DNA of 64,000 nt from an uncultured Prevotellaceae bacterium. GTDB taxonomy: Bacteria; Bacteroidota; Bacteroidia; Bacteroidales; Bacteroidaceae. The notes beneath the pieces were generated by a model. It had not been told where the DNA came from, did not search any database, and saw only the letters and a program-made list of their open reading frames with translations. Shown here piece by piece: positions 10,312 to 56,503 of the stretch; the stretch's first letter is position 1; each line of letters opens with the position of its first letter. The stretch covers positions 1-64,000 of the forward strand of contig OMXS01000008.1 in NCBI GenBank assembly GCA_900315095.1, in the 5' to 3' direction. The translations under genes were made by a program, and so were the position numbers.

Positions 10312-11742
10312 TCACATTTTTGACAGATAATCATTTACCTTTCGTGCTGTCTCAATTCCGCTTGCCATAGCACGAACTACGAGAGATGCTCCGTTTTTGG
10401 CATCGCCACATACGAATACATTGGAAGGATATTCTGGATGCTCTGGTTTTAGGAAACCCATAGCGAGCAGACAGAGTTCTGCCTTGATGATTTCTGGTTC
10501 GCCCTTCTCTACCATAATAGGACGACCGCCGTCGGGATTTGGCTTCCAGTCTATCTCCTGTACCTTGACACCTTTAAGTTTGCCGTTTTCCCCAATGAAC
10601 TCAAGCGTGTTGATGTTCCATCGGCGTGTACAGCCTTCTTCGTGTGATGAAGTGGTCTTTAGTGTGCGTGGGAAATTTGGCCACGGATTTTGTGGGTCCT
10701 CAGGACCCTCCACAGGCTTGGGCATAATCTCAATTTGAGTAACGCTCTTGCAACCTTGGCGGTGGGCAGTGCCGATACAGTCAGAGCCAGTGTCTCCACC
10801 GCCAATCACGAGGACATCTTTGCCCTTGGCAGTGATGCGTTCGTTCTTGTTAAAATCCATGCCAGCAAGAACTCTGTTTTGCTGAGATAGCAATTCAAGA
10901 GCAAAGTGAACGCCATTTAGTTCACGGCCGGGGATTTTCAAGTCTCGGGCTGTTGGAGTGCCGGTGGCTATGATGATGGCGGAGAATGCCTCCCCAAGCC
11001 CCTCCCAAGGAGGGGATGTTTGGTTACAAGAAGAGGCAGAAGCATCAGGGTCGCTATGTATCTCAACACCCTCTCCTTGGGAGGGGCTTGGGGAGGCTTT
11101 TAGGTTATACTTGAACTCAATACCTTCGGTCTCCAGCAAGGCGATACGACGGTCTATGATTGCTTTGTTGAGTTTAAAGTTCGGAATACCGTAACGGAGC
11201 AGACCGCCTGCCGCTTCGTTCTTCTCAAATACTGTAACCGTATAACCCATCTGATTGAGAGCGTCAGCAGCAGCTATGCCAGCAGGACCTGCACCGACGA
11301 CGGCTACACGCTTCCCGTTTCTGACAGGTATGCGTGGTTGAATGTATCCCTCGCGAAAGGCAGCCTCAGTTATGGCGCACTCATCTTCGCGGTTTGTTGT
11401 CGGCTCATGATTAAAACGGTTCAGAACACAAGCTTTCTCACATAAAGCAGGGCATATGCGACCTGTGAACTCGGGGAATGGGTTGGTAGAGTTGAGCAGT
11501 CGGTATGCCAACTCCCAGTCACCTTTATATAATGCATCGTTCCACTCCGGTGCCTTGTTGCCCAGAGGACATGCCCAGTGGCAGAATGGCACGCCGCAAT
11601 CCATGCAACGTGATGCCTGCAACTTGCGTTCACGAGTGTTGAGCGTCTGCTCCACCTCGCCAAAGTCATGTATTCTATCGTGAATCGGACGGTATCCAGC
11701 TTCCTGCCGGTGTATCTCTAAAAATGCTTTCGGATTTCCCAT
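10312..11742 (-). CDS. gltD: Glutamate synthase (NADPH) small subunit, with in-frame repeat insertion
   Basis: Beta subunit of GOGAT, feeding electrons from NAD(P)H through FAD and Fe-S centres to the large subunit. The N-terminal Fe-S region has CMDCGVPFCHWACPLGN and CPALCEKACV. The FAD motif VAVVGAGPAGIAAADALNQ is near residue 148, and the NAD(P)H motif VLVIGGGDTGSDC near residue 310. Residues about 215-252 (SPSPSQGEG ... TSPPWEGLGEAF) do not resemble GltD; they are encoded by a 110-bp inverted-repeat element that keeps the frame open. The insertion falls between two strands of the FAD domain, a plausible surface loop. The gene lies 77 nt downstream of gltB. Confidence 0.96.
   Translation of the reverse strand: MGNPKAFLEIHRQEAGYRPIHDRIHDFGEVEQTLNTRERKLQASRCMDCGVPFCHWACPLGNKAPEWNDALYKGDWELAYRLLNSTNPFPEFTGRICPALCEKACVLNRFNHEPTTNREDECAITEAAFREGYIQPRIPVRNGKRVAVVGAGPAGIAAADALNQMGYTVTVFEKNEAAGGLLRYGIPNFKLNKAIIDRRIALLETEGIEFKYNLKASPSPSQGEGVEIHSDPDASASSCNQTSPPWEGLGEAFSAIIIATGTPTARDLKIPGRELNGVHFALELLSQQNRVLAGMDFNKNERITAKGKDVLVIGGGDTGSDCIGTAHRQGCKSVTQIEIMPKPVEGPEDPQNPWPNFPRTLKTTSSHEEGCTRRWNINTLEFIGENGKLKGVKVQEIDWKPNPDGGRPIMVEKGEPEIIKAELCLLAMGFLKPEHPEYPSNVFVCGDAKNGASLVVRAMASGIETARKVNDYLSKM
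10988..11097. repeat. 110-bp inverted-repeat element inside gltD (family A)
   Basis: Perfect 25-bp inverted arms at 10988-11012 and 11073-11097 (each contains CCCCAAGCCCCTCCCAAGG or its complement) surround a 60-bp spacer. The element is translated in frame within gltD. Shorter CCCTCCC/GGGAGGG relatives occur in the PurF-like gene, twice in asnB, and between genes at 55331-55349. Confidence 0.95.
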
Positions 11743-11744
11743 TG

Positions 11745-11819
11745 CTATATTTTACTATTTCACTATTTACTATTTTCTTGCCAATTGTCTAATCGTAAAT
11801 TGTCCAATTGTCAAATAAA
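11745..11819. repeat. A/T-rich low-complexity repeat between gltB and gltD (family D)
   Basis: The 77-nt intergenic gap is almost filled with variants of TTTACTATTTCACTATTTAC and AATTGTCCAATTGTC. Similar text fills the gaps at 21160-21258, 25919-25962 and, more loosely, 41300-41340. Confidence 0.7.
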
Positions 11820-17198: not shown

Positions 17199-18452
17199 AT
17201 GAACGAAATAGGATTATCACTTGATACTGTATGGATGCTATTGGCAGCCATGTTGGTTTTCTGGATGCAACCAGGTTTTGCCCTTTGTGAGGCTGGCTTC
17301 ACTCGAGGCAAGAACGCGGCAAACATCTTGATGAAGAACTTCGTTGACTTCATGTTTGGCTCTTTGTTGTTCTTCTTCATTGGTTTTGGATTTATGTTCG
17401 GCAGCGACGGTGCAGGTTTCATCGGCATGCCTAACTGGGGTGACCTGAGTTTCTATAAAGGCGATCTGCCTGTTGAGGGTTTCCTTATTTTTGAGACTGT
17501 CTTTTGTGCAACATCTGCCACCATCGTAAGCGGTGCAATGGCTGAGCGCACTAAGTTCTCGATGTATCTTCTTTATAGCGCTGCCATCTCGCTGTTCATC
17601 TACCCCATTGAAGGTCATTGGACTTGGGGCGGCGGCTGGCTGTGCAATGATGCCGTGGATAGTTTCATGATGAGTACGTTTGGCGATGTGTTCCACGACT
17701 TTGCCGGCTCTGCTATTGTGCATAGCGTGGGTGGTGTATTGGCTCTGATTGGTGCTATGGCCCTTGGACCTCGTCTTGGCAAATACTCTGCCGACGGAAA
17801 GAGCCGCGCTATTCCTGGTCACAACCTGACATTGGCTTCATTGGGCGTCTTTATCCTTTGGATGGGATGGTTCGGCTTTAACCCCGGCTCGCAGTTGGCA
17901 GCCTCTGGCGAAGTGAATCGTGTGGCTATCTCTCACGTGTTCCTTACAACCAACCTTGCTGCGGTGGCAGGAGGCACGGCAACGATGTTTGTTACATGGA
18001 TGAAGTATGGCAAGCCGTCACTTTCGTTGACGCTGAACGGCGTGCTGGCTGGTCTTGTGGGCATCACGGCTGGTTGTGACCTTGTGTCGCCCATGGGTGC
18101 TGTCGTTATAGGTCTTGTATGTGGCACGGTGCTGGTGTTTGCTATTGAGTTTATCGATCACAAGTTGCACATCGACGATCCTGTGGGTGCATCCTCTGTT
18201 CACGGTATCTGTGGCATTCTCGGTACGTTGATGACGGGCTTGCTCTCTACGAGCAACGGAGCCTTCTACGGTCACGGCTGGGGATTCTTCGGTGCCGAGT
18301 GCTTCGGTGTTCTTGTCATCGACCTCTGGGCTGCCGCCTGTGGTTTCGCCCTCTTCTACGGTATCAAGAAATTACATGGTCTTAGAGTCGATGCCCGCAT
18401 CGAGGACGAGGGCTTGGACATCTACGAACATGGAGAAACGTGTTATAATTAG
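17199..18452 (+). CDS. amtB: Ammonium transporter Amt/AmtB family
   Basis: A 417-residue inner-membrane channel for NH4+/NH3 with about 11 transmembrane helices. Family signatures are present: MQPGFALCEAGFTRGKN near the N-terminus, DFAGSAIVHSVGG with the pore-lining region, LGWFGFNPGSQLAA-type sequence (here WMGWFGFNPGSQLAA), and DDPVGASSVHGICGILGTL with the conserved twin-His partner. No clear signal peptide is seen. It lies downstream of the PII gene. The stop codon TAG is fused to the first bases of a 151-bp repeat. Confidence 0.97.
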   Translation: MNEIGLSLDTVWMLLAAMLVFWMQPGFALCEAGFTRGKNAANILMKNFVDFMFGSLLFFFIGFGFMFGSDGAGFIGMPNWGDLSFYKGDLPVEGFLIFETVFCATSATIVSGAMAERTKFSMYLLYSAAISLFIYPIEGHWTWGGGWLCNDAVDSFMMSTFGDVFHDFAGSAIVHSVGGVLALIGAMALGPRLGKYSADGKSRAIPGHNLTLASLGVFILWMGWFGFNPGSQLAASGEVNRVAISHVFLTTNLAAVAGGTATMFVTWMKYGKPSLSLTLNGVLAGLVGITAGCDLVSPMGAVVIGLVCGTVLVFAIEFIDHKLHIDDPVGASSVHGICGILGTLMTGLLSTSNGAFYGHGWGFFGAECFGVLVIDLWAAACGFALFYGIKKLHGLRVDARIEDEGLDIYEHGETCYN

Positions 18453-18602
18453 CATGTTAAGGAGGTATAGGAAGATAAATGGAGATAGTCGCCCGAAGGC
18501 GATGGTAGATAGAGGACATCACTCTGTCTGCGGTAATCCTGTAGCAAAACTAATGTCTTTTATCTCCCTCTGTCTTCATCTATCTCCCTCTATCTACAGA
18601 GC
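18452..18602 (+). repeat. 151-bp leader repeat, copy B
   Basis: Ungapped match to the complement of 3996-4146 (about 85% by hand count). It starts in the last base of the amtB stop codon and ends 33 nt before the next start codon. The hairpin reads GTCGCC-CGAA-GGCGAT, so the stem is kept while the loop differs. GTAGATAGAGG and CCTCTATCTAC form an 11-bp pair between its halves. Confidence 0.85.
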
Positions 18603-18635
18603 ATGCGAAAGTTGAATATTTAAAATATATAAGGT

Positions 18636-19553: not shown

Positions 19554-21155
19554 ATGGATACAAAGTATATCTTCGTTACAGGCGGCGTCGTTTCTTCGTT
19601 AGGAAAGGGCATCATCTCCGCCAGCATCGGTAAACTGCTGCAGGCGCGAGGCTACCGCATCACCATTCAGAAGTTTGATCCTTATATTAACATTGACCCG
19701 GGAACGCTGAATCCTTATGAACATGGCGAGTGTTACGTGACAGCCGACGGTATGGAGACAGACCTTGACCTCGGTCACTATGAGCGTTTTACGGGCATTG
19801 AGACCACATGCCACAACAGCATCACTACAGGCCGTATCTACAAGACTGTTATCGACCGTGAGCGTCATGGTGATTATCTGGGCAAGACCATTCAGGTGGT
19901 GCCGCATATCACGGACGAGATAAAGCGGCGTATGTTGCGTGAGGAGGAAAAGGATGAGCGGTTTGACTTTGTCATCACCGAAGTGGGCGGTACCATTGGC
20001 GACATCGAGAGTGCGCCGTTTATGGAGGCCATACGTCAGTTGCGGTGGCAGTTGGGACGTGATGCGGTGTGTGTGCATCTTACTTATGTGCCTTACCTGA
20101 AAGCTGCCGACGAGTTGAAGACGAAACCCACGCAGCACTCTGTGAAGGAGTTGCAAAGTATGGGTATTCAGCCAGATATTCTCGTACTTCGTACGGAACG
20201 CCACCTTGACGACGCTATGCGACTGAAGGTGGCTTCGTTTTGTAATGTGGACCTTGAGTGCGTGGTGCAGAGCGAGGATATGCCGAGCATTTACGAGGTG
20301 CCTGTCAACATGCAGCGACAGGGACTTGATGCTGCCATTCTGCGGAAGATAGGAATACCGGTGGGCGAGACTCCGGCAATGAAATCATGGCACGACTTTC
20401 TCGACAAGCAGCATCATGCTAGTCGCGAGGTGCATATCGGTTTAGTGGGCAAGTACGACCTGCAGGATGCTTATAAGAGCATCCGTGAGAGTCTTAACCT
20501 GGCGGGTATATATAATGAAGTGAGGACAAAACTGCATTTTATCAATAGTGAAAACATAAATGAAAAAAATGTTGGTGAAAAACTGGAGGGAATGCAGGGC
20601 GTGCTTATTTGTCCTGGTTTCGGACAACGTGGCATTGAAGGAAAAATAATTGCGGCTGAATACTGTCGCACCCATGATGTTCCTACCTTCGGCATCTGTC
20701 TTGGCATGCAGATGATGGTTATTGAGTTTGCACGGAATGTACTGGGTTTCCAGGATGCCAACAGTAGTGAGATGTCCTCTGATACAAAACATCCTGTAAT
20801 TGATCTGATGGAAGACCAGAAGACCGTTAAGCAGATGGGCGGTACCATGCGTCTCGGAGTGTATGAGTGTGAACTGGCAAGAGACAGCCGTGCTTATGAG
20901 GTTTATGGTCAGGAGTCATTGATTAAGGAAAGACATCGCCATCGCTATGAGTTCAACAACCAGTTCCTGTCAGAGTTTGAGGATGCTGGCATGAAGTGTG
21001 TGGGCATAAATCCTTCTGCCAAATTGGTGGAGATAGTTGAGATTCCAGATAAGAAATGGTATATCGGAACGCAGTTTCATCCTGAATATTCTTCTACTGT
21101 GCTGCATCCGCACCCATTATTTTTGTCGTTTGTAAAAGCATGCATAGAGATTTGA
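19554..21155 (+). CDS. pyrG: CTP synthase
   Basis: Aminates UTP to CTP with glutamine as nitrogen donor. The 533-residue length is standard. The synthetase domain opens with YIFVTGGVVSSLGKGI and has the Mg-binding FDPYINIDPGTLNPYEHGE. The C-terminal class I glutaminase has Cys in FGICLGMQMM and the His/Glu pair in GTQFHPEYSS. It is followed by other glutamine-dependent enzymes (PurF-like, CarA, AsnB) in the same orientation, forming a run of amidotransferase genes opposite the GS/GOGAT operon. Confidence 0.98.
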   Translation: MDTKYIFVTGGVVSSLGKGIISASIGKLLQARGYRITIQKFDPYINIDPGTLNPYEHGECYVTADGMETDLDLGHYERFTGIETTCHNSITTGRIYKTVIDRERHGDYLGKTIQVVPHITDEIKRRMLREEEKDERFDFVITEVGGTIGDIESAPFMEAIRQLRWQLGRDAVCVHLTYVPYLKAADELKTKPTQHSVKELQSMGIQPDILVLRTERHLDDAMRLKVASFCNVDLECVVQSEDMPSIYEVPVNMQRQGLDAAILRKIGIPVGETPAMKSWHDFLDKQHHASREVHIGLVGKYDLQDAYKSIRESLNLAGIYNEVRTKLHFINSENINEKNVGEKLEGMQGVLICPGFGQRGIEGKIIAAEYCRTHDVPTFGICLGMQMMVIEFARNVLGFQDANSSEMSSDTKHPVIDLMEDQKTVKQMGGTMRLGVYECELARDSRAYEVYGQESLIKERHRHRYEFNNQFLSEFEDAGMKCVGINPSAKLVEIVEIPDKKWYIGTQFHPEYSSTVLHPHPLFLSFVKACIEI

Positions 21156-21159: not shown

Positions 21160-21258
21160 TTGTATAATTCACAATTTCACGATTTCACAATTGGACGATT
21201 GTCACATTGAAATTGTAAAATAGTAAAATCGTGAAATAGTAAAATCGTGAAATATAAA
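21160..21258. repeat. A/T-rich low-complexity repeat between pyrG and the PurF-like gene (family D)
   Basis: The whole 104-nt gap consists of imperfect repeats of CACAATTTCACGATTTCAC in one half and of GTAAAATCGTGAAATAGTA in the other, the two halves being roughly complementary. It could fold into a long imperfect hairpin in the transcript. Confidence 0.75.
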
Positions 21259-21259
21259 A

Positions 21260-23050
21260 ATGGAGCAGCTAAAACATGAATGTGGCGTGGCGATGATTCG
21301 CCTGTTAAAACCGTTAAGCTATTATGAGCAGAAATACGGTACCAGTCGCTATGGGCTGAACAAACTCTATCTGATGATGGAGAAACAGCATAACCGCGGA
21401 CAGGAAGGTGCTGGCATCGCTTGCGTCAACATGGGTGCTCCCGTAGGCGAGGAGTATATGTTCCGTGAGCGGGCGGAGGGTAAGGATGCAATAACAGAGA
21501 TATTCAGAGGCCTGTCTCAAACATCCCCCCGTAGAGGAACAGATGCACCAGAAACCTCCCCTGCAGGAGGATGGGAGGGAGCTTCATTGTATATGGGTCA
21601 TCTACGCTATAGCACAACGGGTAAAAGAGGTTTGACGTATGTTCACCCTTTCTTGCGCCGAAATAACTGGAGGGCAAAGAATCTCTGTCTCTGTGGCAAC
21701 TTCAATATGACCAACATCAATGAAGTGTTTCAGTTTCTTACTTCACAAGGGCAGTCTCCACGAGTTCACGGTGACGCTTATATCACGCTCGAACTTATGG
21801 GACATCGACTGGACCGTGAGGTCGAGCGGTTGTATGCTGAAGCCCGAGAACAAGGACTGGAAGGAACGGACATTACATGCTATATAGATGATAATGTGGA
21901 TATGGCCAATGTCCTGAAAACTACAATGCCGCACTTCGATGGTGGTTATGTGATGTGCGGACTGACGGGCTCGGGTGAGATGTTCGCCGTTCGTGACCCA
22001 TGGGGCATTCGCCCTGCATTCTATTATCAAGACGATGAGGTGGTGGTGCTGGCAAGTGAGCGCCCAGTTATACAAACATGTTTCGACCTGCAAACCGAAG
22101 ACATTCGTGAACTGCAGCCGGGGCAGTCGCTCATTGTTCGTAAGAGCGGCGAAAGCTGTCTGCAACAGATAATGCCGCCAGAGCAAAATTACGCTTGTTC
22201 GTTTGAACGCATATATTTCAGCCGAGGCTCTGATCGTGATATCTATCTGGAGCGTAAACAGTTGGGTGAACAGCTGACCCCTGCCATTTTGCAAGCGATT
22301 GAAAATGACGTGCGCAATACAGTCTTTTCATACATCCCCAATACTGCCGAGGTGGCTTTCTATGGAATGACTGACGGCTTGAGAAAACAGAACCACGAGG
22401 TAAGAATAGAGAAGGTGGTCTGGAAAGACATCAAACTGCGCACTTTCATTACCGAGAGTGACGAGCGCAATGACCTTGCTGCTCATGTATATGACATCAC
22501 TTACGGTTCTCTTAAACCCTATGAGGACAACCTCGTTATCATAGACGACTCCATCGTGCGTGGTACTACGCTTCGTGAGAGTATATTCAAGATTCTTGAC
22601 CGTCTGCACCCCAAGAAGATTGTGATGGTGTCTAGTTCTCCTCAGATTCGCTATCCTGACTATTACGGCATAGATATGTCGCATCTTGAAGAACTATGTG
22701 CCTTCCGTGCAGCTGTCTCTCTTATCAAAGAGCGAGGTATGCAACAACTACTGGCGGAAACATACAGGGCATGTAAGGCAGAGCCATTGGCAAGGAACCA
22801 TGTACGCGATATTTACGCGCCGTTTACTGTTCACGAGATTAACAATAGAATCGTCGAGATGCTGCGGCCAAAAGGCATGCAGGCTCCTGTGGAGTTAGTG
22901 TACCAGAGCATCGAAGGTCTGCACGAAGCATGCCCACGTCATGCAGGTGATTGGTATTTCACAGGACATTATCCCACGCTTGGCGGCATACGCCTTTGCA
23001 ACGAGGCATTCGTACAATATGTAGAGAAGACATTAAAAATGCAATTATAG
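21260..23050 (+). CDS. purF: Amidophosphoribosyltransferase-like protein (PurF family, long form)
   Basis: Class II glutaminase joined to a phosphoribosyltransferase domain, the architecture that makes phosphoribosylamine for purine synthesis. The nucleophile Cys is in KHECGVAMI (residue 8), so a short N-terminal stretch must be removed. The PRPP-binding loop LVIIDDSIVRGTTLRESIF is intact, as is the following SSSPQIRYPDYYGIDM. At 596 residues it is longer than ordinary PurF (about 470-510), and Bacteroidales often carry such a second form, so it may not be the only purine enzyme. Residues about 87-108 (SQTSPRRGTDAPETSPAGGW) come from a repeat insertion. Seven bases separate it from the next gene. 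Confidence 0.88.
   Translation: MEQLKHECGVAMIRLLKPLSYYEQKYGTSRYGLNKLYLMMEKQHNRGQEGAGIACVNMGAPVGEEYMFRERAEGKDAITEIFRGLSQTSPRRGTDAPETSPAGGWEGASLYMGHLRYSTTGKRGLTYVHPFLRRNNWRAKNLCLCGNFNMTNINEVFQFLTSQGQSPRVHGDAYITLELMGHRLDREVERLYAEAREQGLEGTDITCYIDDNVDMANVLKTTMPHFDGGYVMCGLTGSGEMFAVRDPWGIRPAFYYQDDEVVVLASERPVIQTCFDLQTEDIRELQPGQSLIVRKSGESCLQQIMPPEQNYACSFERIYFSRGSDRDIYLERKQLGEQLTPAILQAIENDVRNTVFSYIPNTAEVAFYGMTDGLRKQNHEVRIEKVVWKDIKLRTFITESDERNDLAAHVYDITYGSLKPYEDNLVIIDDSIVRGTTLRESIFKILDRLHPKKIVMVSSSPQIRYPDYYGIDMSHLEELCAFRAAVSLIKERGMQQLLAETYRACKAEPLARNHVRDIYAPFTVHEINNRIVEMLRPKGMQAPVELVYQSIEGLHEACPRHAGDWYFTGHYPTLGGIRLCNEAFVQYVEKTLKMQL
21520..21582. repeat. Repeat insertion inside the PurF-like gene (family A)
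   Basis: Contains CATCCCCCC, CCTCCCCTGCAGGAGG and GATGGGAGGGA with mutual complementarity, matching the CCCTCCC-type palindromes seen in gltD and asnB. Translated in frame. Confidence 0.7.
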
Positions 23051-23056: not shown

Positions 23057-25918
23057 ATGAGAGAAGCAAGATTAATACTTGATGACGGAAGTCAGTTTAT
23101 AGGTCGTTCGTTTGGATATGATGCTAATACTGTGGGCGAGGTGGTTTTCAATACTGCAATGACAGGCTATCCTGAAAGTCTGACAGACCCGAGCTATGCA
23201 GGACAGATATTAGTGACAACCTTCCCGCTGATAGGTAACTATGGAGTACCTGATGCAGGCATGGGTAACGATGGACTTCCTTTGTTTATGGAGAGCGAGC
23301 GAATTTATCCCAAGGCATTGGTTGTTGCCGACTACAGCAAAGCATATTCACATTGGAATGCTGCCGAGAGTCTAGAATCGTGGTTGAAACGCGAGAAGAT
23401 ACCTGCCATAACGGGCATTGACACGCGAAGGCTAACCAAGGTACTCAGGGAAAGTGGTGTCATGATGGGGAAAATAGTTATAGATGGCATTAACGACACA
23501 GAGGATACAGATAGCATAGATTACGGTTCCGTGAACTGGGTGGAGAAGGTAAGTTGCAAGGAGGTCATAACCTATCAACCAACACCAAACACCCATCACC
23601 AAACACCTAAGCGTGTTGTACTTGTGGACTGCGGCGTCAAGGCAAACATTATCCGTTGTTTGACAAGAAGGGGTGTTGAGGTTATTCGTGTTCCATGGGA
23701 CTATGACTTTAACCAACTCGACTTCGATGGACTGTTTTTATCCAATGGTCCTGGCGATCCAGAGCAGTGCGGCAAGACTGTGGAACACATTAGAAAATTC
23801 CTTGCTAACGGACAAGTACGTCCTTGTATGGGTATCTGTCTTGGTAACCAACTTCTTGCACGTGCGGCAGGAGCCAACACATATAAGTTGAAATACGGTC
23901 ATCGCTCGCACAACCAACCTGTCAGGAAAATTGGCACGACGCAATGCTTTATCACGAGCCAGAATCATGGATATGCCGTTGATGACGCGACGCTGCCATC
24001 AGGCTGGACTCCGTTATTCGTCAACATGAACGACGGCTCGAATGAGGGAATACGCCATCAGACGAAACCGTGGTTTTCTGCACAGTTTCACCCAGAGGCA
24101 TGCTCTGGTCCTGTGGACACGGAGTTTTTGTTTGATGAGTTCGTTTCTTTGGTGGATAAGTTTACAAATAATCAAAATGACAAGCCGGATGTATGTGTAA
24201 ACAACTCGTCAACACCAAATAACGATATGCCGACTATAAAGAAAGTGCTCTTGCTGGGTAGTGGAGCATTGAGGATAGGGCAGGCAGGCGAGTTCGACTA
24301 TAGTGGCTCGCAAGCACTTAAAGCATTGAGAGAGGAGGGCATCCATACTATTCTCGTTAATCCAAACATTGCCACGGTGCAGACATCTAAAGATGTTGCC
24401 GATACTGTGTATTTTCAGCCTGTGACGCCAGAGTTGGTGGAACGTATTATAGAAAAAGAACGTCCCGATGGCATCTTGCTGTCATTTGGTGGACAAACGG
24501 CTCTGAACTGTGGTGTGGAACTTTACCAAAAGGGTGTTTTCGATAAGTATGGTGTTCAGGTATTGGGAACCCCTGTTCAAGCAATTATCGATACGGAAGA
24601 TCGTGACCGTTTCGTGCAGCGGCTCGATGAGATAGGGGTGAAGACTATCAAAAGTGAGGCTTGCTCTTCTGTTGAGGAGGTGCAGAGGGCTGCGCATGAA
24701 CTTGGTTTCCCCGTAATCTTAAGAGCTGCTTATGCACTCGGAGGGTTAGGTAGTGGATTCTGCGACAATGAGACTGAGCTTTTGTCACAAGCAGAGGAAG
24801 CCTTTTCATTCTCGCCTCAGGTTTTGGTAGAGAAGAGTCTGCGTGGCTGGAAGGAGATAGAGTATGAGGTTGTACGCGACCGCTTTGACAATTGCATCAC
24901 GGTCTGCAATATGGAGAATTTCGATCCTCTGGGTATCCATACAGGCGAGAGTATCGTCGTTGCTCCCAGCCAGACACTCTCGAATGCTGAATATCATAAA
25001 TTGCGTGCTCTTGCCATCAAGATAGTCCGTCACATCGGAATCGTCGGCGAATGTAATGTGCAGTATGCCTTCGACCCACAGTCGGAGGACTATCGTGTCA
25101 TTGAGGTAAATGCCCGTCTCAGCCGTTCTTCTGCGCTCGCCTCAAAAGCAACGGGCTATCCGCTCGCCTTCGTAGCCGCCAAGTTAGGACTTGGTTTTGG
25201 CATCTTTGAGTTAAAGAATTCAATCACCAAGACCACGACAGCATTTTTCGAGCCAGCTCTCGACTATGTGGTTGTGAAAATTCCTCGCTGGGACTTGACA
25301 AAGTTCCGTGGCGTGAAGCGTGAGCTCGGTTCCTCGATGAAGAGTGTTGGCGAGGTAATGTCCATCGGTCGCACATTTGAAGAGGCTCTTCAGAAAGGTC
25401 TTCGCATGATAGGTCAGGGCATGCACGGATTTGTGGAAAACCACGAAATAAAAATCAAGGATATTGTTAAGGCACTTCATGAACCTACTGACATGCGTAT
25501 CTTTGTCGTGTCGAAGGCCATGAAGGTGGGGTATAGTGTAGAGCAGATTCATCAGCTGACGATGATTGACCGCTGGTTCCTTGAGAAGTTGAAACATATC
25601 ATTGATATTGACCAGCAGTTGCGTGAGTTTAGGCAGTTGGCTGATATGGTAACGTTTATGGAGCCAATGGAACTCGTTGAGTATCTCGAAGCTCCAGAAT
25701 TTGTAAATCTCTTGCGCGAGGCCAAGGTGTATGGTTTTTCAGATTTCCAAATAGGGCGTGCCATAGGACTTGAGAACTGTATGAGTATGGAGCAGGCAGG
25801 TCTCACCATTCGTAAGTGGCGTAAAGAACTGGATGTTGTGCCAACGGTCAACCAGATAGACACCCTTGCTGCCGAATATCCAACAGAAACCAATTATCTT
25901 TATCTCTCATACTTGTAA
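23057..25918 (+). CDS. carA: Carbamoyl phosphate synthetase: small subunit fused to the first half of the large subunit
   Basis: One 953-residue frame. Residues 1 to about 378 are a complete CarA glutaminase subunit: N-terminal domain, then Cys in MGICLGNQLL and His/Glu in SAQFHPEACS. A short Asn/Thr-rich linker leads to a CarB-type start (MPTIKKVLLLGSGALRIGQ) at about residue 392. What follows is the first ATP-grasp half (carboxyphosphate synthetase) and the oligomerisation domain, ending at AAEYPTETNYLYLSYL. The second ATP-grasp half and the allosteric (MGS-like) domain, about 500 residues, are absent and not found elsewhere in the window. Either another locus supplies full-length CarB or this fused half works as a dimer. 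A short repeat insertion lies at residues 172-184. Confidence 0.9.
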   Translation: MREARLILDDGSQFIGRSFGYDANTVGEVVFNTAMTGYPESLTDPSYAGQILVTTFPLIGNYGVPDAGMGNDGLPLFMESERIYPKALVVADYSKAYSHWNAAESLESWLKREKIPAITGIDTRRLTKVLRESGVMMGKIVIDGINDTEDTDSIDYGSVNWVEKVSCKEVITYQPTPNTHHQTPKRVVLVDCGVKANIIRCLTRRGVEVIRVPWDYDFNQLDFDGLFLSNGPGDPEQCGKTVEHIRKFLANGQVRPCMGICLGNQLLARAAGANTYKLKYGHRSHNQPVRKIGTTQCFITSQNHGYAVDDATLPSGWTPLFVNMNDGSNEGIRHQTKPWFSAQFHPEACSGPVDTEFLFDEFVSLVDKFTNNQNDKPDVCVNNSSTPNNDMPTIKKVLLLGSGALRIGQAGEFDYSGSQALKALREEGIHTILVNPNIATVQTSKDVADTVYFQPVTPELVERIIEKERPDGILLSFGGQTALNCGVELYQKGVFDKYGVQVLGTPVQAIIDTEDRDRFVQRLDEIGVKTIKSEACSSVEEVQRAAHELGFPVILRAAYALGGLGSGFCDNETELLSQAEEAFSFSPQVLVEKSLRGWKEIEYEVVRDRFDNCITVCNMENFDPLGIHTGESIVVAPSQTLSNAEYHKLRALAIKIVRHIGIVGECNVQYAFDPQSEDYRVIEVNARLSRSSALASKATGYPLAFVAAKLGLGFGIFELKNSITKTTTAFFEPALDYVVVKIPRWDLTKFRGVKRELGSSMKSVGEVMSIGRTFEEALQKGLRMIGQGMHGFVENHEIKIKDIVKALHEPTDMRIFVVSKAMKVGYSVEQIHQLTMIDRWFLEKLKHIIDIDQQLREFRQLADMVTFMEPMELVEYLEAPEFVNLLREAKVYGFSDFQIGRAIGLENCMSMEQAGLTIRKWRKELDVVPTVNQIDTLAAEYPTETNYLYLSYL
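23572..23609. repeat. Repeat insertion in the CarA interdomain linker (family B)
   Basis: CAACCAACACCAAACACCC followed by ATCACCAAACACC, translated as TYQPTPNTHHQTPK exactly between the CarA N-terminal and glutaminase domains. The same text style occurs in ispD (39051-39082) and, complemented, between genes at 50313-50350. Confidence 0.7.
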
Positions 25919-25962
25919 TTATTGAATTGTAAAATAGTAGAATCGTTAAATCGTCTAATAAA
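25919..25962. repeat. A/T-rich low-complexity repeat between carA-carB' and asnB (family D)
   Basis: ATTGAATTGTAAAATAGTAG and AATCGTTAAATCGTC variants fill the 47-nt gap, as in the gaps before the PurF-like gene and gltD. Confidence 0.65.
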
Positions 25963-25965: not shown

Positions 25966-27723
25966 ATGTGTGGAATAGTAGCTATACTGAACGTGAAGGA
26001 ACAGACGCAGGAATTGCGTCAAAAAGCATTGGGCATGAGTCAGAAAATCCGTCATCGCGGTCCTGACTGGAGTGGAATCTACTGTGGCGGAAATGCCGTT
26101 CTCGCTCATGAGCGACTGAGTATTATCGACCCTGAATCGGGAGGACAACCTCTCTATTCGCCAGACAGGAAACAAGTATTGGCCGTCAATGGCGAGATAT
26201 ACAACCATCAGGAAATACGCCGTCGTTATATCGGTCAGTATGAGTTTCAAACGGGTAGCGACTGCGAGGTAATCCTTGCTCTATATAGGAGCCTCACCTC
26301 CAGCTCCTCTCCAACGGGAGAGAGGAGTATAAACACTCATGAGCAGATTTGCGCGATGCTAGAACAGTTAAGTGGAATCTTTGCCTTTGTACTTTACGAC
26401 GAGGAGCGCGACGAGTTTCTTATAGCCCGTGACCCTATAGGTGTCATACCATTATATATTGGTTACGATAGTGACGGCACCGTTTATGTAGCTTCGGAAC
26501 TGAAAGCCCTTGAAGGGCAATGTGAGCGTTACGAGCCATTCCCTCCAGGTCATTATTATTGGAGTGTGTCGCCAGGTTTAAAGCGGTACTACCAACGTGA
26601 CTGGATGCAGTATGAGGCCGTTAAAGACAACCCTGCCAGCGTTGAGTCAATTCGCTATGCACTCTATGATGCAGTTCGTAGGCAGTTGATGTCCGACGTG
26701 CCATACGGGGTACTCCTATCAGGTGGACTTGACAGTAGTGTTATCTCTGCCATCGCACAGAAGTTTAGCGAACATCGCATTGAGGATGACAGTCGCACGA
26801 AAGCCTATTGGCCACGACTTCATTCCTTTGCCGTCGGTCTGAAGGGGGCTCCCGACTTGGCTAAAGCCCGTCTTGTGGCTGACCATATTGGAACTGTACA
26901 TCACGAAATCAACTATACCATTCAGGAAGGACTTGATGCCATCCGTGATGTCATATACTATATCGAGACTTATGATGTCACCACCGTTCGTGCCTCCACA
27001 CCAATGTATTTATTGGCACGTGTGATAAAGTCGATAGGTATTAAGATGGTGCTTTCAGGCGAAGGTGCCGATGAAATTTTCGGTGGTTACCTCTACTTCC
27101 ATAAAGCTCCATCTGCCAAAGATTTCCATGAGGAGACAGTTCGCAAACTCTCAAAGCTCCATCTCTATGATTGCCTGCGTGCAAACAAAAGTCTATCGGC
27201 TTGGGGTGTGGAGGGTCGTGTGCCGTTTCTTGACAAGGAGTTCCTCGATGTTGCCATGCGTACCAATCCGGAAGCAAAGATGTGTGGCCCCCTCCCATCC
27301 TCCCCCGATATGGGAGGAGCTGAAAACGGCTTTGTTATTGAGAAGAAGATTGTGCGAGAGGCCTTTGCCGACTTGCTACCAGAAGAGATAGCATGGAGAC
27401 AGAAAGAACAGTTCAGCGATGGCGTTGGATACTCGTGGATAGATACTCTTAAAGACATCACTTCTAAAGCCGTTTCGGACGAGCAGATGGCTCATGCGGC
27501 GGAACGTTTCCCTATCAACCCGCCGAAGAACAAGGAGGAGTATTACTACCGTAGTATCTTTGCCGAGCATTTCCCCTCTGACTCTGCTGCCCGTAGCGTG
27601 CCCTCGGAGGCTAGCGTTGCCTGCTCCACAGCCGTTGCTCTTGAATGGGATGCCGCCTTCCGTAACATGAATGACCCTAGTGGCCGTGCCGTCAAAGGCG
27701 TACACGAGCAGGCTTATTCTTAA
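25966..27723 (+). CDS. asnB: Asparagine synthase (glutamine-hydrolysing), with two in-frame repeat insertions
   Basis: Makes asparagine from aspartate, ATP and glutamine. Cys2 after the start Met (MCGIVAIL) is the class II glutaminase nucleophile. The glutaminase pocket RLSIIDPESGGQPLY and NGEIYNH are intact, and the synthetase domain has the PP-loop LLSGGLDSSVISAIA. The 585 residues are slightly longer than E. coli AsnB (about 554). Two loops, residues about 109-121 (TSSSSPTGERS) and 441-451 (PLPSSPDMGGA), are encoded by small CCTCC/GGAGG hairpins of the repeat family found in gltD. The gene closes the amidotransferase run, and a 22-bp palindrome array begins 57 nt after the stop. Confidence 0.96.
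   Translation: MCGIVAILNVKEQTQELRQKALGMSQKIRHRGPDWSGIYCGGNAVLAHERLSIIDPESGGQPLYSPDRKQVLAVNGEIYNHQEIRRRYIGQYEFQTGSDCEVILALYRSLTSSSSPTGERSINTHEQICAMLEQLSGIFAFVLYDEERDEFLIARDPIGVIPLYIGYDSDGTVYVASELKALEGQCERYEPFPPGHYYWSVSPGLKRYYQRDWMQYEAVKDNPASVESIRYALYDAVRRQLMSDVPYGVLLSGGLDSSVISAIAQKFSEHRIEDDSRTKAYWPRLHSFAVGLKGAPDLAKARLVADHIGTVHHEINYTIQEGLDAIRDVIYYIETYDVTTVRASTPMYLLARVIKSIGIKMVLSGEGADEIFGGYLYFHKAPSAKDFHEETVRKLSKLHLYDCLRANKSLSAWGVEGRVPFLDKEFLDVAMRTNPEAKMCGPLPSSPDMGGAENGFVIEKKIVREAFADLLPEEIAWRQKEQFSDGVGYSWIDTLKDITSKAVSDEQMAHAAERFPINPPKNKEEYYYRSIFAEHFPSDSAARSVPSEASVACSTAVALEWDAAFRNMNDPSGRAVKGVHEQAYS
26291..26330. repeat. Repeat insertion 1 in asnB (family A)
   Basis: CTCCTCTCC (26304-26312) pairs with GGAGAGAGGAG (26317-26327) around a 4-nt gap; translated in frame in the glutaminase domain. 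Confidence 0.7.
27288..27320. repeat. Repeat insertion 2 in asnB (family A)
   Basis: CTCCCAT (27292-27298) pairs with ATGGGAG (27310-27316), within CCCCCTCCCATCCTCCCCC and GGGAGGAGC; translated in frame in the synthetase domain. Confidence 0.7.
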
Positions 27724-27779: not shown

Positions 27780-27862
27780 TTACAAGCGGTTTGTAACTGT
27801 ATTACAAGCCGCTTGTAACATCATTACAAACGGTCTGTAATCTCTTTACAAGGCGCTTGTAA
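27780..27862. repeat. Array of four 17-bp palindromes with exact 22-bp period
   Basis: Palindromes start at 27780, 27802, 27824 and 27846: TTACAAGCGGTTTGTAA, TTACAAGCCGCTTGTAA (perfect around its central base), TTACAAACGGTCTGTAA and TTACAAGGCGCTTGTAA. The 5-bp spacers differ. The array lies after the asnB stop and 37 bp before a perfect promoter, so it could be a multi-site operator or a downstream element of asnB. Confidence 0.92.
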
Positions 27863-27898
27863 TAATATCGAAGCATGTGAAAAATGTTGCGATAAAAT

Positions 27899-29873: not shown

Positions 29874-31028
29874 ATGCAAAATACAACGGAAAAGAATACA
29901 AACGCGACACTAAAGACAGGCAACGGACTTCTTGCGATGAGTGAGTCGGCTGCCCTTAGGGGCATTGCAATACTCGGTATCATGCTGCATAACTATTGCC
30001 ATTGGCTCGGTTTTGCGGTCAAGGAGAACGAGTATACGTTCGATGCAGAGCGACCTATGCAGTTCTGGGATAAGCTGATGTCGTTCGACTCCGACCTTTT
30101 CATCCATTTCTTCTCCTTCTTCGGACATTATGGTGTGCCCGTTTTCCTCTTCGTCAGCGGCTTCGGACTCGTGAAGAAATACGAGAAGGGGTTGAGTGTC
30201 GAGCGTCGAGCGTTGAGCGAAGACACTATTGATAGCAAGACAAATCTCTCTCAAAACTCATCTCTCAACGCTTTACACTTCATGAAAAAGCATTTCCTCA
30301 AGCTCTTCCGCTTGATGATAATCGGCTATGTCGTGTTTATCATTGTCTATTTCCTGCGCAACAGCAATGCCTCAACGGTGTTCAGCATCGACCATGTGAT
30401 TGCGCAACTGACGATGGTGATAAACTTCGTGTATAAGTATCCTGACAAAGCGATAACGCCTGGACCATATTGGTTCTTCGGACTTATGGTGCAACTCTAC
30501 GCTCTCTACATATTATTATATAACCGCTGGCGCAACTGGAAGGTGCTAATAGTTACTATTCTCATTTGCTGGGCAGTGGAGTGGGCCGCTAATGCCTATG
30601 GATGGGGTGCGATAAACTTCGTGCGTTACAACTTCATTGGCGGCGTGTTGCCCTTTGCTATGGGCATTGCCTACGCCCGTTGGGGAAGGGAACTGCCGCG
30701 CATGGGTTATCTCGCCTTGACTCTGTTGTCAGCACTCGTGGTGCTCTTCGGCAGTTTCTGGTTCCACGGATGGCTGTGGGTGCCCGTTGCTGTTGTTGTT
30801 GGAGCGGTGTCAACGGTGCGTCTCCTGCCTTCATGGCTGCTCAATCCTGCTGCTTGGGTGGGTGCTCTGTCGGCTGCAATCTTCGTGATGCATCCCGTGG
30901 CGCGTGAACTGATAATAAGTCATTACCGCCGAGCCGACATCTACGGCGGCATTGCCGTCTATGTGTTCAGTACCTTCGCAATGGCCATGTTGCTGCGATA
31001 TTTGCTGAAATATATACCCAAACCCTAA
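29874..31028 (+). CDS. Acyltransferase 3 family membrane protein with in-frame repeat insertion
   Basis: A 384-residue multi-helix protein of the acyltransferase 3 (OafA/WecH-like) family, which O-acylates surface sugars or other small acceptors. The family start is seen (SAALRGIAILGIMLHNYCHW, with the essential His), and about ten hydrophobic segments follow. Residues about 106-135 (GLSVERRALSEDTIDSKT ... SSLNAL) sit between two helices and are encoded by a repeat also found between genes at 56.5 kb. The gene follows the phosphoethanolamine transferase-like gene and may decorate the same surface molecule. Confidence 0.85.
   Translation: MQNTTEKNTNATLKTGNGLLAMSESAALRGIAILGIMLHNYCHWLGFAVKENEYTFDAERPMQFWDKLMSFDSDLFIHFFSFFGHYGVPVFLFVSGFGLVKKYEKGLSVERRALSEDTIDSKTNLSQNSSLNALHFMKKHFLKLFRLMIIGYVVFIIVYFLRNSNASTVFSIDHVIAQLTMVINFVYKYPDKAITPGPYWFFGLMVQLYALYILLYNRWRNWKVLIVTILICWAVEWAANAYGWGAINFVRYNFIGGVLPFAMGIAYARWGRELPRMGYLALTLLSALVVLFGSFWFHGWLWVPVAVVVGAVSTVRLLPSWLLNPAAWVGALSAAIFVMHPVARELIISHYRRADIYGGIAVYVFSTFAMAMLLRYLLKYIPKP
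30191..30278. repeat. Inverted low-complexity repeat inside the acyltransferase gene (family C)
   Basis: GTTGAGTGTCGAGCGTCGAG plus CGTTGAGCGA at 30191-30220 faces CTCTCTCAAAACTCATCTC plus TCAACGC at 30245-30270. The two arms are the same kind of GTTGAG repeat in opposite orientation around about 25 bp. The whole segment is translated in frame. Confidence 0.8.
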
Positions 31029-34720: not shown

Positions 34721-34785
34721 AACAAAGTTAATAACTTTGTTCAACAATCCTATTAACTTTGTTCAACAAAGTTAATAACATTGTC
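34721..34785. repeat. Array of three 21-bp palindrome-based units with exact 22-bp period
   Basis: Units start at 34721, 34743 and 34765. The first is a palindrome with 10-bp arms, AACAAAGTTA and TAACTTTGTT, around a central A. The second keeps the right arm with a changed left arm (AACAATCCTA). The third keeps the left arm and has one change in the right (TAACATTGTC). It lies in a 485-bp gap between two minus-strand genes. Confidence 0.9.
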
Positions 34786-38455: not shown

Positions 38456-39163
38456 ATGGACTATGCCATAATACTTGGAGGCGGAAAAGGGTTGCGAATG
38501 GGCGCAGACGTGCCAAAGCAGTTCCTGCCTGTCGGAGGTGTACCGATATTGATGCGCACCATCTGGCGGTTCCGTGAATATAGCGACTCTTTGAAGATAA
38601 TCCTTGTCTTGCCAGAGAGTCAGCAGGATTATTGGCGCAACCTGTGTGCAGAATATGATTTCCAAGAGGACTATCAAGTGGCTAATGGTGGTGCAACCCG
38701 CTTCCATTCAATAACAAATGGACTAGCTTTGATCCCTGATGATGCAGAAGGAGTTGTGGCCGTTCACGATGGTGTGCGACCATTCCCGAGCGTTGAGGTT
38801 ATCGCGCGCTGCTATGAGACGGCACGGCAGACGGGTACGGCAGTGCCTGTTACTCCTGTTATCGAGACTTTGCGCCATGTGACGGCTGAGCATCCTGAGG
38901 GAGTGACTGTGCCGCGTGGCGATTACCGACTTGTGCAGACACCACAGGCTTTTGACATCCAACTGCATAAGCAAGCTTATCGCCAGCCTTATAACGATGG
39001 TTTTACTGACGATGCTTCGGTGGTGGAGAGTTTTTTCTCACAAAATATATCTCCCAACAGCCAACATCCATCACCCATCACCTTGGTAGACGGTAACCGT
39101 GAGAATATAAAGATAACGACGCCCTTTGACCTGAAGATAGCGGAGGTGCTGGCAGACGAATGA
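38456..39163 (+). CDS. ispD: 2-C-methyl-D-erythritol 4-phosphate cytidylyltransferase, with repeat insertion
   Basis: Third step of the MEP isoprenoid pathway: couples MEP to CTP. The CTP-binding loop ILGGGKGLRMGADVPKQFL is at the N-terminus, VAVHDGVRPF in the middle, and NIKITTPFDLKIAE at the end. Residues about 199-209 (NISPNSQHPSP) are encoded by a short low-complexity insertion in the loop just before the last conserved strand. A second IspD-like gene lies at 44613-45332; the present one, next to housekeeping recG, is the better candidate for the true MEP enzyme. Confidence 0.92.
   Translation: MDYAIILGGGKGLRMGADVPKQFLPVGGVPILMRTIWRFREYSDSLKIILVLPESQQDYWRNLCAEYDFQEDYQVANGGATRFHSITNGLALIPDDAEGVVAVHDGVRPFPSVEVIARCYETARQTGTAVPVTPVIETLRHVTAEHPEGVTVPRGDYRLVQTPQAFDIQLHKQAYRQPYNDGFTDDASVVESFFSQNISPNSQHPSPITLVDGNRENIKITTPFDLKIAEVLADE
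39051..39082. repeat. Repeat insertion inside ispD (family B)
   Basis: CTCCCAACAGCCAACATCC and ATCACCCATCACC, the same style as the CarA linker insertion; translated in frame. Confidence 0.6.
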
Positions 39164-50311: not shown

Positions 50312-50312
50312 T

Positions 50313-50350
50313 TGGTGTTAAGTGAGGGGTGTTAGGTGCTGTTGATGTCC
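50313..50350. repeat. Intergenic low-complexity repeat (family B, opposite strand)
   Basis: TTGGTGTTAAGTGAGGGGTG then TTAGGTGCTGTTGATG, the complement style of the insertions in CarA and IspD. The rest of the 71-bp gap is T-rich. Confidence 0.55.
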
Positions 50351-52989: not shown

Positions 52990-53128
52990 TATGTATCAAT
53001 GAGATTCCAGTTGTATATCAATGAGGTACTCAAATATATACCAATGAGGTACTCAAATATATACCAATGAGGCTCCCATTAGGCATCAATGACACTCTCA
53101 TTAGGCATCATTCGCATTCCCATTAGAC
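52990..53128. repeat. Tandem array of 22/23-bp units between two genes
   Basis: Six units start near 52990, 53012, 53035, 53058, 53080 and 53102 (22, 23, 23, 22, 22 bp), plus a seventh fragment. They share a TATRYATCAATGAGRYWCYCA-like core (for example TATATACCAATGAGG twice; TAGGCATCAATGACACTC). The array fills the gap between the stop of the PAP2 gene and the acyltransferase. Confidence 0.88.
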
Positions 53129-53737: not shown

Positions 53738-53745
53738 TCGGGCTG

Positions 53746-53753: not shown

Positions 53754-53886
53754 CTCAATTCCAATGAAATAACTATGTAATTTAACTGAATTAACAGAGT
53801 GATTCCAAGAGAAAGGAAATAAAAATCGGCGGAATTGCTGAACAAAACCGCCGAATTTGCTCGGTAAAAACCTTACTTGTAATTGT

Positions 53887-55224: not shown

Positions 55225-55330
55225 TTTCTTTGTTTTATTGTTTATTGTTTAATGTTTATCGTTATGTGTTTTGGTTGCGATGGCATCGCAATATACGGGA
55301 CGTGTGCCCTAATAATGATTGTGATGGAAA

Positions 55331-55349
55331 TCCCTCCCTTAGGGAGGGA
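55331..55349. repeat. Intergenic palindrome of family A
   Basis: TCCCTCCCTTAGGGAGGGA, an intergenic relative of the insertions in gltD and asnB. The remaining gap (55225-55368) has a T-rich TTTATTGTTTATTGTTTAA repeat just upstream of the symporter gene. Confidence 0.7.
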
Positions 55350-55368
55350 CATAGAGTGGGCGGTTTCC

Positions 55369-56394
55369 TTAACGCGTAGTTCCTCTTACAACTAATCGTG
55401 TCCTCACCACTTTCTTCTCAATCTTACCAGAAGGAAGAAGTCCTTCGACGTGAGCCACAAGCACATCGACAGCTTCTTCTCCTACCATGTGCCCGCGCTG
55501 TTCGACGGTGGTAAGCATCGGGTCGCATGCCACGGCGCGTTCTCCGTTTGTGAATCCGCAGATGCTGACATCCTCTGGCACTTTGAACCCCATTCGCTTG
55601 GCGGTATATAGTATTCCGATGGCGGTGTCGTCGTTGATTGCAAAGAAAGCGTCGGGCCTGTCCTCGCGGCTTAACACCTCTGGTGTGAGCACTTCAGCAT
55701 CGGCGCGGTTGTCGCAGATGAACTCCAGCGACTCGTCTATTTGCAACCCGTGGCGCAGCAGAGCGTCGCGGTAACCGTTATAGCGGTTCTTTGAAATCTC
55801 GAGTTTCATCGAAGCGCCATAGAAAGCGATGCGTCTGCACCCTGTCTCTATGAGATGTGTCACAGCTGTAAATGCTCCCATGTAGTCGTCAACCACCACA
55901 CGGCTGGCATTAATGCCTGTGCAAATGCGGTCGTAGAACACCAAAGGCACTCCCATGTTGGTAAGTTTCTGGAAGTGATCGTATTCCACTGTGTCCTTCG
56001 CTTGTGACACAATGACTCCGCAGACGCGGTTTTCCATGAAGTGTTCGCATATGCGTTTCTCTAAGTCATATCGCTCCTCGCTTTGTGCCACCATGATATT
56101 GTAGCCGCGAATGCGTGCCTGTTCCTCGATGCCTGAAAGTATCGTGGAGAAGTAGTAGTGTGCTATCTGCGGTATAATCACGCCGATGATGTTCGAGGGT
56201 TTCACTCGGTTGTGGCGCAGTTGCTCTGCTGTGAGGTTCGGATAAAAGTTATGTTCGCGCGCAAACTTTTTGATGCGCTCCTTCTGTTCGGTGCTGATGC
56301 GCGGGCTGTCTTTCAATGCCCTTGACACCGTAGCCACCGAAACGCCCAGTTCGCGGGCAATATCTTTCATCGTGAATGAGGTGCTATCGTTCAT
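55369..56394 (-). CDS. LacI-family transcriptional regulator
   Basis: A 341-residue repressor or activator. The DNA-binding domain is at the N-terminus (TMKDIARELGVSVATVSRAL, hinge helix about residues 50-60), followed by a periplasmic-binding-protein-type sugar sensor (GVIIPQIAHYYFSTILSGIE ... VPEDVSICGFTNGE). It is divergent from the susC operon and upstream of the symporter gene. A perfect palindrome GCAAACGTTTGC at 56608-56619, the classical LacI-type site, lies in the shared region, so control of both sides is likely. Confidence 0.95.
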   Translation of the reverse strand: MNDSTSFTMKDIARELGVSVATVSRALKDSPRISTEQKERIKKFAREHNFYPNLTAEQLRHNRVKPSNIIGVIIPQIAHYYFSTILSGIEEQARIRGYNIMVAQSEERYDLEKRICEHFMENRVCGVIVSQAKDTVEYDHFQKLTNMGVPLVFYDRICTGINASRVVVDDYMGAFTAVTHLIETGCRRIAFYGASMKLEISKNRYNGYRDALLRHGLQIDESLEFICDNRADAEVLTPEVLSREDRPDAFFAINDDTAIGILYTAKRMGFKVPEDVSICGFTNGERAVACDPMLTTVEQRGHMVGEEAVDVLVAHVEGLLPSGKIEKKVVRTRLVVRGTTR

Positions 56395-56475
56395 AGGTTC
56401 CCTTTCGTTTAGAGCTTACAGTTTGTTGTTTTAGAGTTCAGGACTTATAGTTGGAGTTTAAAATGAGGTGATTTC

Positions 56476-56503
56476 GCTCAACACTCAACGCTCAACACCC
56501 AGC
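56476..56503. repeat. Intergenic low-complexity repeat (family C)
   Basis: CGCTCAACACTCAACGCTC then AACACCCAG, the same repeat text that is translated inside the acyltransferase at 30191-30278. It lies in the 425-bp region between lacI and susC. Confidence 0.75.

What the first reader, a model, noticed from the sequence alone, without database searches (positions are those of the whole stretch)
10988..56503. Intergenic repeat families also occur in frame inside conserved enzymes
Seen: at least three kinds of low-complexity or palindromic text occur both between genes and within coding frames. Family A (CCCTCCC/GGGAGGG) is in gltD, the PurF-like gene and asnB (twice), and between genes at 55331. 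Family B (CCAACACC/CATCACC) is in the CarA linker and ispD, and between genes at 50313. Family C (GTTGAG) is in an acyltransferase, and between genes at 56476. In every gene the frame stays open and the extra residues fall where a loop or domain linker is expected. This resembles the palindromic elements known to enter Rickettsia proteins, but I know of no description for this group. Inference: an active process spreads short sequences that tolerate translation.
Basis: partly seen in the sequence, partly recalled or inferred. Interest (0 to 1): 0.88.

Follow-up and report, generated by a model that had tools for sequence, protein, structure and literature searches.

The report
Palindromic DNA spliced into enzyme loops
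In rumen Prevotella and close kin, short palindromic DNA elements and seven-base repeats sit in frame inside variable loops of conserved enzymes, so the cell appears to translate its repeats as extra loop segments; the kind is known from Rickettsia, but I found no report of it at this scale in this group.

Summary
The gltD segment (10988-11097) is an inverted pair of GC-rich hairpins. An exact scan of GTDB species genomes (86 stretches, 80 returned) gave 79 distinct pairs, all under Prevotella, Xylanibacter or unspecific titles; 68 of 70 lying in long ORFs read in one codon phase (ASPSPS..GLGEA) with spans of 3n-1 nt, inside DnaE, Era, MetG, UvrA, DapB, GltB/D, PyrG, CarAB and others. Orthologues lack them or carry other repeats in the same loop. 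Families B and C are not palindromes but imperfect seven-base arrays, the dominant tandem period here; in-gene B arrays in 9 of 9 genes read on the C-rich strand. Arms stay nearly identical while spacers and fourfold sites diverge; no same-genome pair in different genes shares 90% of the spacer, so 'active spreading' is not supported for family A. Resident PF01797 transposases are not linked to it. Best reading: Rickettsia-element-like palindromes plus slippage arrays, filtered by the same permissive loops. New variant of a known kind.

The parts
10312..11742 (-). gltD (glutamate synthase small chain), host gene
10988..11097 (-). family A inverted hairpin pair (span 110 nt, read as ASPSPSQGEG..SPPWEGLGEA); with 3-nt flanks 10985-11100
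26290..26328 (+). hairpin CTCCTCTCC-AACG-GGAGAGAGGAG in asnB (SLTSSSSPTGERS), similar to the SLTPNPS/SLTPDPS hairpins of G050 gltD and Era
27288..27322 (+). degenerate hairpin TCCTCCC..GGGAGGA in asnB; the corresponding place in AsnB of L266 holds a full family A pair
21522..21582 (+). degenerate GC-rich hairpin text in the PurF-like gene (LSQTSPRRGTDAPETSPAGGWEGAS), absent from the G034 orthologue (L031)
23579..23607 (+). family B heptamer array in the CarA linker (QPTPNTHHQTP)
39053..39082 (+). family B heptamer array in IspD (SPNSQHPSPI)
30191..30219 (+). family C heptamer array GTTGAGT/GTCGAGC in an acyltransferase (LSVERRALSE); orthologues not compared
55332..55348 (+). intergenic hairpin CCCTCCCTTAGGGAGGG (different hairpin set, same core)
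56477..56499 (-). intergenic family C heptamer array
55231..55263 (+). intergenic heptamer array TTTATTG
20343..20411 (+). PyrG loop without element here; filled by family A in L227, L281, L288
15480..15539 (-). GltB loop without element here; filled by family A in L267
12732..12788 (-). GltB loop without element here; filled by family A in L231
24158..24244 (+). CarA-CarB linker of the fused gene; family A stands at the corresponding linker in L251

Best explanation
Two kinds of DNA enter the same permissive loops. (1) Family A is a non-autonomous palindromic element: two inverted hairpin units (AAR-GCCTCCCCAAGCCCCTCC-NAA-GGAGGGG) around a spacer. It was inserted long ago into conserved genes. 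Copies survive where the codon phase makes it a hydrophilic ASPSPSxGGDV..NQTxPPxEGLGEA segment, and because it is an inverted repeat, both orientations read alike. It is translated as a 30-40 residue loop, inherited, now and then exchanged between species as an allele, and lengthened or shortened in codon steps. (2) Families B and C are imperfect heptamer arrays, probably made by slippage, kept in genes only when read on the stop-free hydrophilic strand. Shown: position, frame, span modulo 3, lineage-specificity, recurrent use of the same loops, arm conservation. Inferred: translation in the cell, original mobilisation by a transposase in trans, slippage, allele exchange, disorder of the loop.
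For:: 68 of 70 pairs in long ORFs read in one phase, spans 3n-1. (overlapping set): 18 of 18 genic pairs alike, 12 non-genic pairs with spans 2, 1, 0 modulo 3 in 6, 3, 3 cases. Hosts include DnaE, Era, MetG, DapB, UvrA, PyrG (names by eye); in G034 the two halves are the only DnaE match; orthologous loops hold different repeat families in different species. DnaE is split into two pieces at one site in 42 of 46 genomes that I had picked by eye from 238 with a match; gaps at these places in solved homologues; 10 of 10 rows (9 genes) of genic B arrays on the C-rich strand; period-7 dominance.
Against: No transposase is linked to family A; no target-site duplication was defined; some occupied sites look like replaced linkers rather than clean insertions (MetG, DapB). 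No proteomic evidence of translation. The structure model of GltD is too poor to show a disordered loop (mean pLDDT 60; 186 of 476 residues below 50). The near-identity of arms beside diverged spacers is not explained by a dead inherited insertion. Allele exchange is not backed by a clear gradient of flank identity with distance.
Confidence: 0.72

Rival explanations
1. Hairpin arms are kept by selection or conversion for a function: the mRNA or DNA hairpin inside the gene does something (ribosome pausing, mRNA stability, protein-binding site), so the elements are domesticated rather than tolerated.
For: Positions not fixed by the search pattern (inner 7-mers) differ in only 5 of 476 left-arm and 16 of 476 right-arm letters in 68 rows, although spacers of non-orthologous copies share 59-60% and fourfold sites of orthologous flanks 63% (1407 of 2230, pooled over pairs in 14 groups). 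In G255 DnaE the inner palindrome is replaced by another perfect one within the same outer arms. Predicted fold -75.5 kcal/mol.
Against: Host genes have no common pathway; decayed copies exist in open genes (G028 gltD). The exact-arm search favours intact copies. One search also shows copies with 1-2 mismatches, and at 3 mismatches totals are near the level of the reversed-pattern control in most of 12 genomes, so decayed copies cannot be counted apart from other C-rich hairpins.
Confidence: 0.2
2. One active mobile process spreads all three families.
For: The kinds of repeat occur in genes and between genes; orthologous copies in gltD (L246/L274) and L271/L289 have identical spacers while flanks are 80-81% alike, and MetG copies likewise with flanks 89-94% alike, so elements or gene segments may still move between species.
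Against: 0 of 131 same-genome different-gene pairs share 90% of the spacer; B and C are period-7 arrays with unit texts that differ from locus to locus; no shared ends seen.
Confidence: 0.12
3. Ordinary low-complexity protein drift: loops became rich in S, P, G, T and the DNA repeats are a by-product of codon bias.
For: The sites are variable linkers in the species compared.
Against: Near-perfect DNA palindromes, shared DNA text across unrelated genes and species, copies outside genes, and period 7 rather than a multiple of three.
Confidence: 0.04
4. The hairpins are skipped: translational bypass or RNA removal, so that the protein lacks the segment.
For: A very stable predicted hairpin inside a conserved gene.
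Against: Reading frames stay open and span plus one is a multiple of three in every phase-0 genic pair, which bypass would not require.
Confidence: 0.04
5. Assembly artefact of metagenome-assembled genomes.
For: Most of the GTDB loci bear MAG or uncultured titles.
Against: A record titled as the cultured strain Xylanibacter brevis ATCC 19188 has the gltD element (L246); frames stay open; many assemblies agree.
Confidence: 0.01

Closest known systems
Rickettsia palindromic elements (RPE; Ogata, Claverie)
   Same: Palindromic DNA of about 150 bp inserted in frame in unrelated metabolic genes, encoding a conserved peptide (as described in passages of PMC10969869 and PMC3733652; the original papers were not read).
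   Different: Other phylum; symmetric pair of hairpin units; one phase in nearly all genic copies; the same loops are re-used by other repeat families in sister species. Sequence relation to RPEs was not tested.
Intragenic REPs / REP dimers, GTAG- and CGTC-tagged
   Same: Short hairpins, often dimers, some inside uvrA, dnaE and tRNA-enzyme genes of other bacteria (PMC3733652, section 15 read).
   Different: Family A has no GTAG or CGTC end tag and is mostly intragenic, whereas that paper finds most REPs intergenic; no RAYT gene beside it.
Enterobacterial RU-1/2/3 small mobile sequences (Delihas 2007)
   Same: Small repeats fused in frame in 24 loci; the shifted frame is hydrophobic and turns up in membrane-type proteins (PMC2759123, passages), as the second frame does here in G034 N-termini.
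   Different: There several large protein genes but primarily other loci; here conserved enzymes, one phase.
Heptanucleotide repeats of Nostoc, Calothrix, Xanthomonas, Beggiatoaceae
   Same: Seven-base tandem repeats in excess, slippage proposed (PMC4692102, PMC4679880, passages).
   Different: Here the unit text changes from locus to locus, and arrays lie in frame in conserved enzymes.

Membership tests
Rickettsia palindromic element-like (works like) | Palindromic insert of roughly 100-150 bp, in frame, in many unrelated genes | tested here: met
Rickettsia palindromic element (member of) | Sequence homology to an RPE family | not tested
   No RPE sequence was compared; the Ogata 2002 paper is not held.
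REPIN (inverted REP dimer) | Two inverted hairpin units separated by a short spacer | tested here: met
REPIN-RAYT system | RAYT gene (PF01797) beside, or co-distributed with, the element | tested here: not met
   PF01797 absent in G003, G026 and G075, which carry arms, and present in genomes without arms; 29 of 31 fetched PF01797 loci have no family A 14-mer within 2 mismatches, 2 (L147, L164) have one imperfect match. A distant or different transposase is not excluded.
GTAG/CGTC-tagged REP | GTAG or CGTC at one end | tested here: not met
   Flanks are mostly AA[AG]-GCCTCCCC on both ends (68 rows). Other hairpins here do begin GTAG (G059 DnaE; beside the RAYT-like gene of L001).
MITE | Terminal inverted repeats with target-site duplication | tested here: inconclusive
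   Inverted repeats yes; clean empty sites at base resolution were not found.
Heptamer simple-sequence repeats | Tandem units of 7 nt in excess of chance | tested here: met

The most novel reading that the evidence does not exclude
In one bacterial genus the flexible loops of essential enzymes are a standing landing ground for the genome's own repeat DNA: hairpin pairs, single hairpins and seven-base arrays replace one another in the same loop from species to species. The hairpin pairs are maintained at DNA or RNA level inside coding sequence, by conversion, by allele exchange between species, or by a function of the hairpin.
Probability: 0.3. Interest if true: 0.88.

Novelty: new variant of a known kind. 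Interest (0 to 1): 0.74.

Why it matters
It offers dozens of natural in-frame insertions in conserved enzymes of a free-living, partly culturable group, with filled, half-filled and empty relatives. How repeat DNA becomes protein, which loops tolerate it, and what keeps coding palindromes nearly perfect can then be tested directly; from what I read, this rested mainly on Rickettsia. It also warns that loop sequences in Prevotella enzymes can be repeat DNA rather than conserved protein.

Tried and rejected
Rejected: the PF01797 transposase as mobiliser in cis; a known structured RNA (Rfam, 0 matches in the window); a single active family; bare 6- to 8-mer counts as evidence. Led nowhere: the AlphaFold model of GltD from a shallow alignment, so it was not searched against structures; base-exact empty sites, because the linkers themselves vary; the Ogata 2002 paper. 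Paper searches for an earlier report in this group listed none that I recognised as such; subscription papers and preprints are mostly not held.

Limits of the counts. The GTDB scan asked for exact 18-mer arms and spans of 89-119 nt and returned 80 of 86 stretches; two loci (L247, L276) were dropped as duplicates and L275 gives two nested rows. Decayed or longer copies are missed, so arm conservation is overstated; the inner 7-mers are less biased. 'Long ORF' means an open stretch with at least 20 residues on each side of the pair and 120 in all, not a gene call. Regular expressions parsed 27 of 30 gltD loci, 12 CarA rows (11 genomes) and 15 IspD rows (14 genomes) from 30 fetched loci, 6 Era rows from 7 genomes, and 14 of 30 DnaE insert loci; the rest were not classified. 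Orthologous groups and host names were assigned by eye. One search held a few stretches twice; without duplicates its period-7 counts are 34 genic and 70 other. An earlier count said 69 phase-0 copies and about 46 DnaE splits; the correct figures are 68 of 70 and 42 of the 46 re-searched.
Full report
Observation. The gltD gene of the window (10312-11742, minus strand) contains an inverted pair of GC-rich hairpin units spanning 10988-11097. Its predicted RNA fold is -75.5 kcal/mol, z -10.2. A second full pair in the own genome lies in another long ORF on contig C30. Bare motif counts are near chance except CCATCACC, and the stretch at 50314 is not an array.

Family A elsewhere. One arm, with up to one mismatch, occurs in 28 of 150 genomes, 26 of them of the same genus. 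An exact scan of the GTDB species collection for both arms 53-83 nt apart found 86 stretches and returned 80 loci, with Prevotella, Prevotellaceae, Xylanibacter or unspecific titles. They hold 79 distinct pairs, two of them nested in one element (L275). Seventy lie in long ORFs. Sixty-eight of these read in the same phase (ASPSPS..GLGEA), one (L236) in a second and one (L244) in the third; nine lie outside by my criterion, one of them (L304) in the same phase but cut by the end of the locus. Hosts recognised by eye from the translations (names recalled, not from a database call) include DnaE, Era, MetG, UvrA, DapB, PyrG, GltB, GltD, CarAB, AsnB, DsbD, Tex, IleRS (a single arm) and LytTR regulators. 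In genome G034 another frame of the arms (HPLLWRGLGRLF) makes up N-terminal hydrophobic segments that look like signal peptides.

The same loops hold different repeats. In gltD the loop after EGIEF holds, species by species, an ordinary short linker, family A, another GC hairpin, CTCTCAC heptamers, SEYSENS-type repeats or small palindromes (27 of 30 loci parsed, read by eye; alignment). In the Era loop after NKID all 6 parsed species differ. In the CarA linker 6 of 12 rows carry heptamer or octamer text and 6 a short linker; the IspD loop is longer only in G000 and G028 among 14 genomes. In DnaE, 238 of 250 genus genomes gave a match; of 46 that I picked by eye as likely split and searched again, 42 showed two pieces broken at this site. 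Fourteen of 30 fetched inserts could be read: 3 family A, 1 family A variant with a different inner palindrome, 3 CTCTTCA heptamers plus 1 partial, 2 GTAG-type hairpins, 1 GAGAACT heptamer, 1 nine-base repeat, 2 without clear repeat. Homologues of known structure have gaps at the GltD, CarA and MnmG places.

Heptamers. A scan for tandem periods 4-24 found period 7 far ahead: in 997 kb of mixed loci 36 genic and 71 other arrays against 2 in one Markov-shuffled copy (34 and 70 without duplicates); in 464 kb of the own genome 12 and 21 against 0, with 4 of period 8. Two relatives of the genus show it too, almost only outside genes (G045 1 genic and 10 other, G016 0 and 10, in 120 kb each), while two other families of the order show none in 40 kb each. 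In 0.56 Mb of the own genome 10 rows of family B arrays in 9 genes are all read on the C-rich strand, giving PTPNTQH-like text (two rows overlap in CarA); 3 lie outside genes. Pfam places the hosts among radical SAM/TRAM, GH3, Dus and other families; MnmG, PrmC and CarA match solved chains. Excess of heptamer repeats in other bacteria, and a slippage explanation, are already in print (PMC4692102 and PMC4679880, passages read).

Age and movement of family A. Between orthologous copies the fourfold sites of the flanks agree in 1407 of 2230 cases. Spacers agree by 59-60% between non-orthologous copies and 73% between orthologues; no same-genome pair in different genes reaches 90% (0 of 131), one pair within what looks like a duplicated gene is identical (L278/L303), and 9 of 44 orthologous pairs reach 90%. 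In gltD (L246/L274) and L271/L289 the spacers are identical while flanks are 80-81% alike; MetG copies are identical with flanks 89-94% alike. This suggests exchange of the allele between species, but pooled flank identity shows no steady gradient with distance from the element: fourfold identity upstream is 0.69 and 0.67 in the first 40 codons, 0.52-0.57 next, then about 0.6; downstream there is no clear trend. The inner 7-mers of the arms, which the search did not fix, differ in 5 of 476 and 16 of 476 letters. Among arm matches with at most two mismatches G309 has 16 exact, 3 with one and 3 with two, G232 10, 5 and 8; with three mismatches allowed, totals in most of the 12 genomes are near the reversed-pattern control, because other C-rich hairpins match (capped list). 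Single-arm versions at an otherwise full site exist (L424, L437). At several sites the element stands in place of a variable linker rather than as a clean addition (MetG, DapB).

Mechanism. I commit to this: old insertion of a non-autonomous palindromic element by a transposase acting in trans (inferred), survival only in permissive loops and in the one phase that gives a hydrophilic segment (shown as a pattern, selection inferred), then inheritance with occasional allele exchange (inferred). Heptamer arrays in the same loops come from slippage (inferred from others' work). What keeps the arms nearly perfect is open. The RAYT-like gene of the own genome is preceded by a different palindrome, G003, G026 and G075 carry arms but no PF01797 match, and no PF01797 locus carries a convincing family A copy.

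Known or new. RPEs in Rickettsia and intragenic REP dimers elsewhere are the nearest kind (PMC10969869 and PMC3733652; passages and one section read), with enterobacterial RU elements (PMC2759123, passages). The BrickBuilt MITE of Porphyromonas gingivalis is described as always intergenic (PMC4596501, passages). I recognised no report for Prevotella in nine searches of the held library (listings seen). I rate it a new variant of a known kind.

Noticed in passing
window 3990-4146 and 18452-18608: Two 157-nt copies in inverted orientation, 85% alike, 14.3 kb apart, rich in AGATAGAGGGAGTTAG-like decamers; possibly another small mobile element.
   Followed up: no
window 2636-2736, 27780-27863, 34721-34784, 53014-53126: Short tandem arrays of 22-23-nt units, some palindromic.
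   Followed up: no
window 21168-21259 and 25917-25951: Period-8 arrays (AAATAGTA/AAATCGTG), one ahead of the PurF-like gene and one between the CarA-CarB gene and asnB; a similar octamer text lies in the CarA linker of G013.
   Followed up: partly
window 23057-25918: CarA and CarB are one fused ORF of 953 aa with a variable linker.
   Followed up: partly
L001:1245-1349: The only PF01797 (RAYT-like) gene of the own genome has an inverted pair with GTAGGGGCGTACCACCGTGTGCGCCC just upstream, a GTAG-type hairpin text; similar text recurs in other own-genome stretches.
   Followed up: partly
G232, many contigs: Pairs of ACCTCCCCTAACCCCTCC often at a constant 76-nt offset, which looks like a more recently spread hairpin pair.
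   Followed up: no
L049, L050, L054, L055 (G034): N-terminal hydrophobic segments built from repeated HPLLWRGLGRLF-like text, a second reading frame of the family A arm.
   Followed up: partly
L347 (G255 DnaE): Outer family A arms kept, inner palindrome exchanged for CATTCCCGACG-GCA-CGTCGGGAATG; hints at modular units.
   Followed up: partly
L087-L106 (G003, G026): In G003 and G026 the sampled arms and pairs lie mostly outside long ORFs, unlike in the rumen-type genomes.
   Followed up: partly
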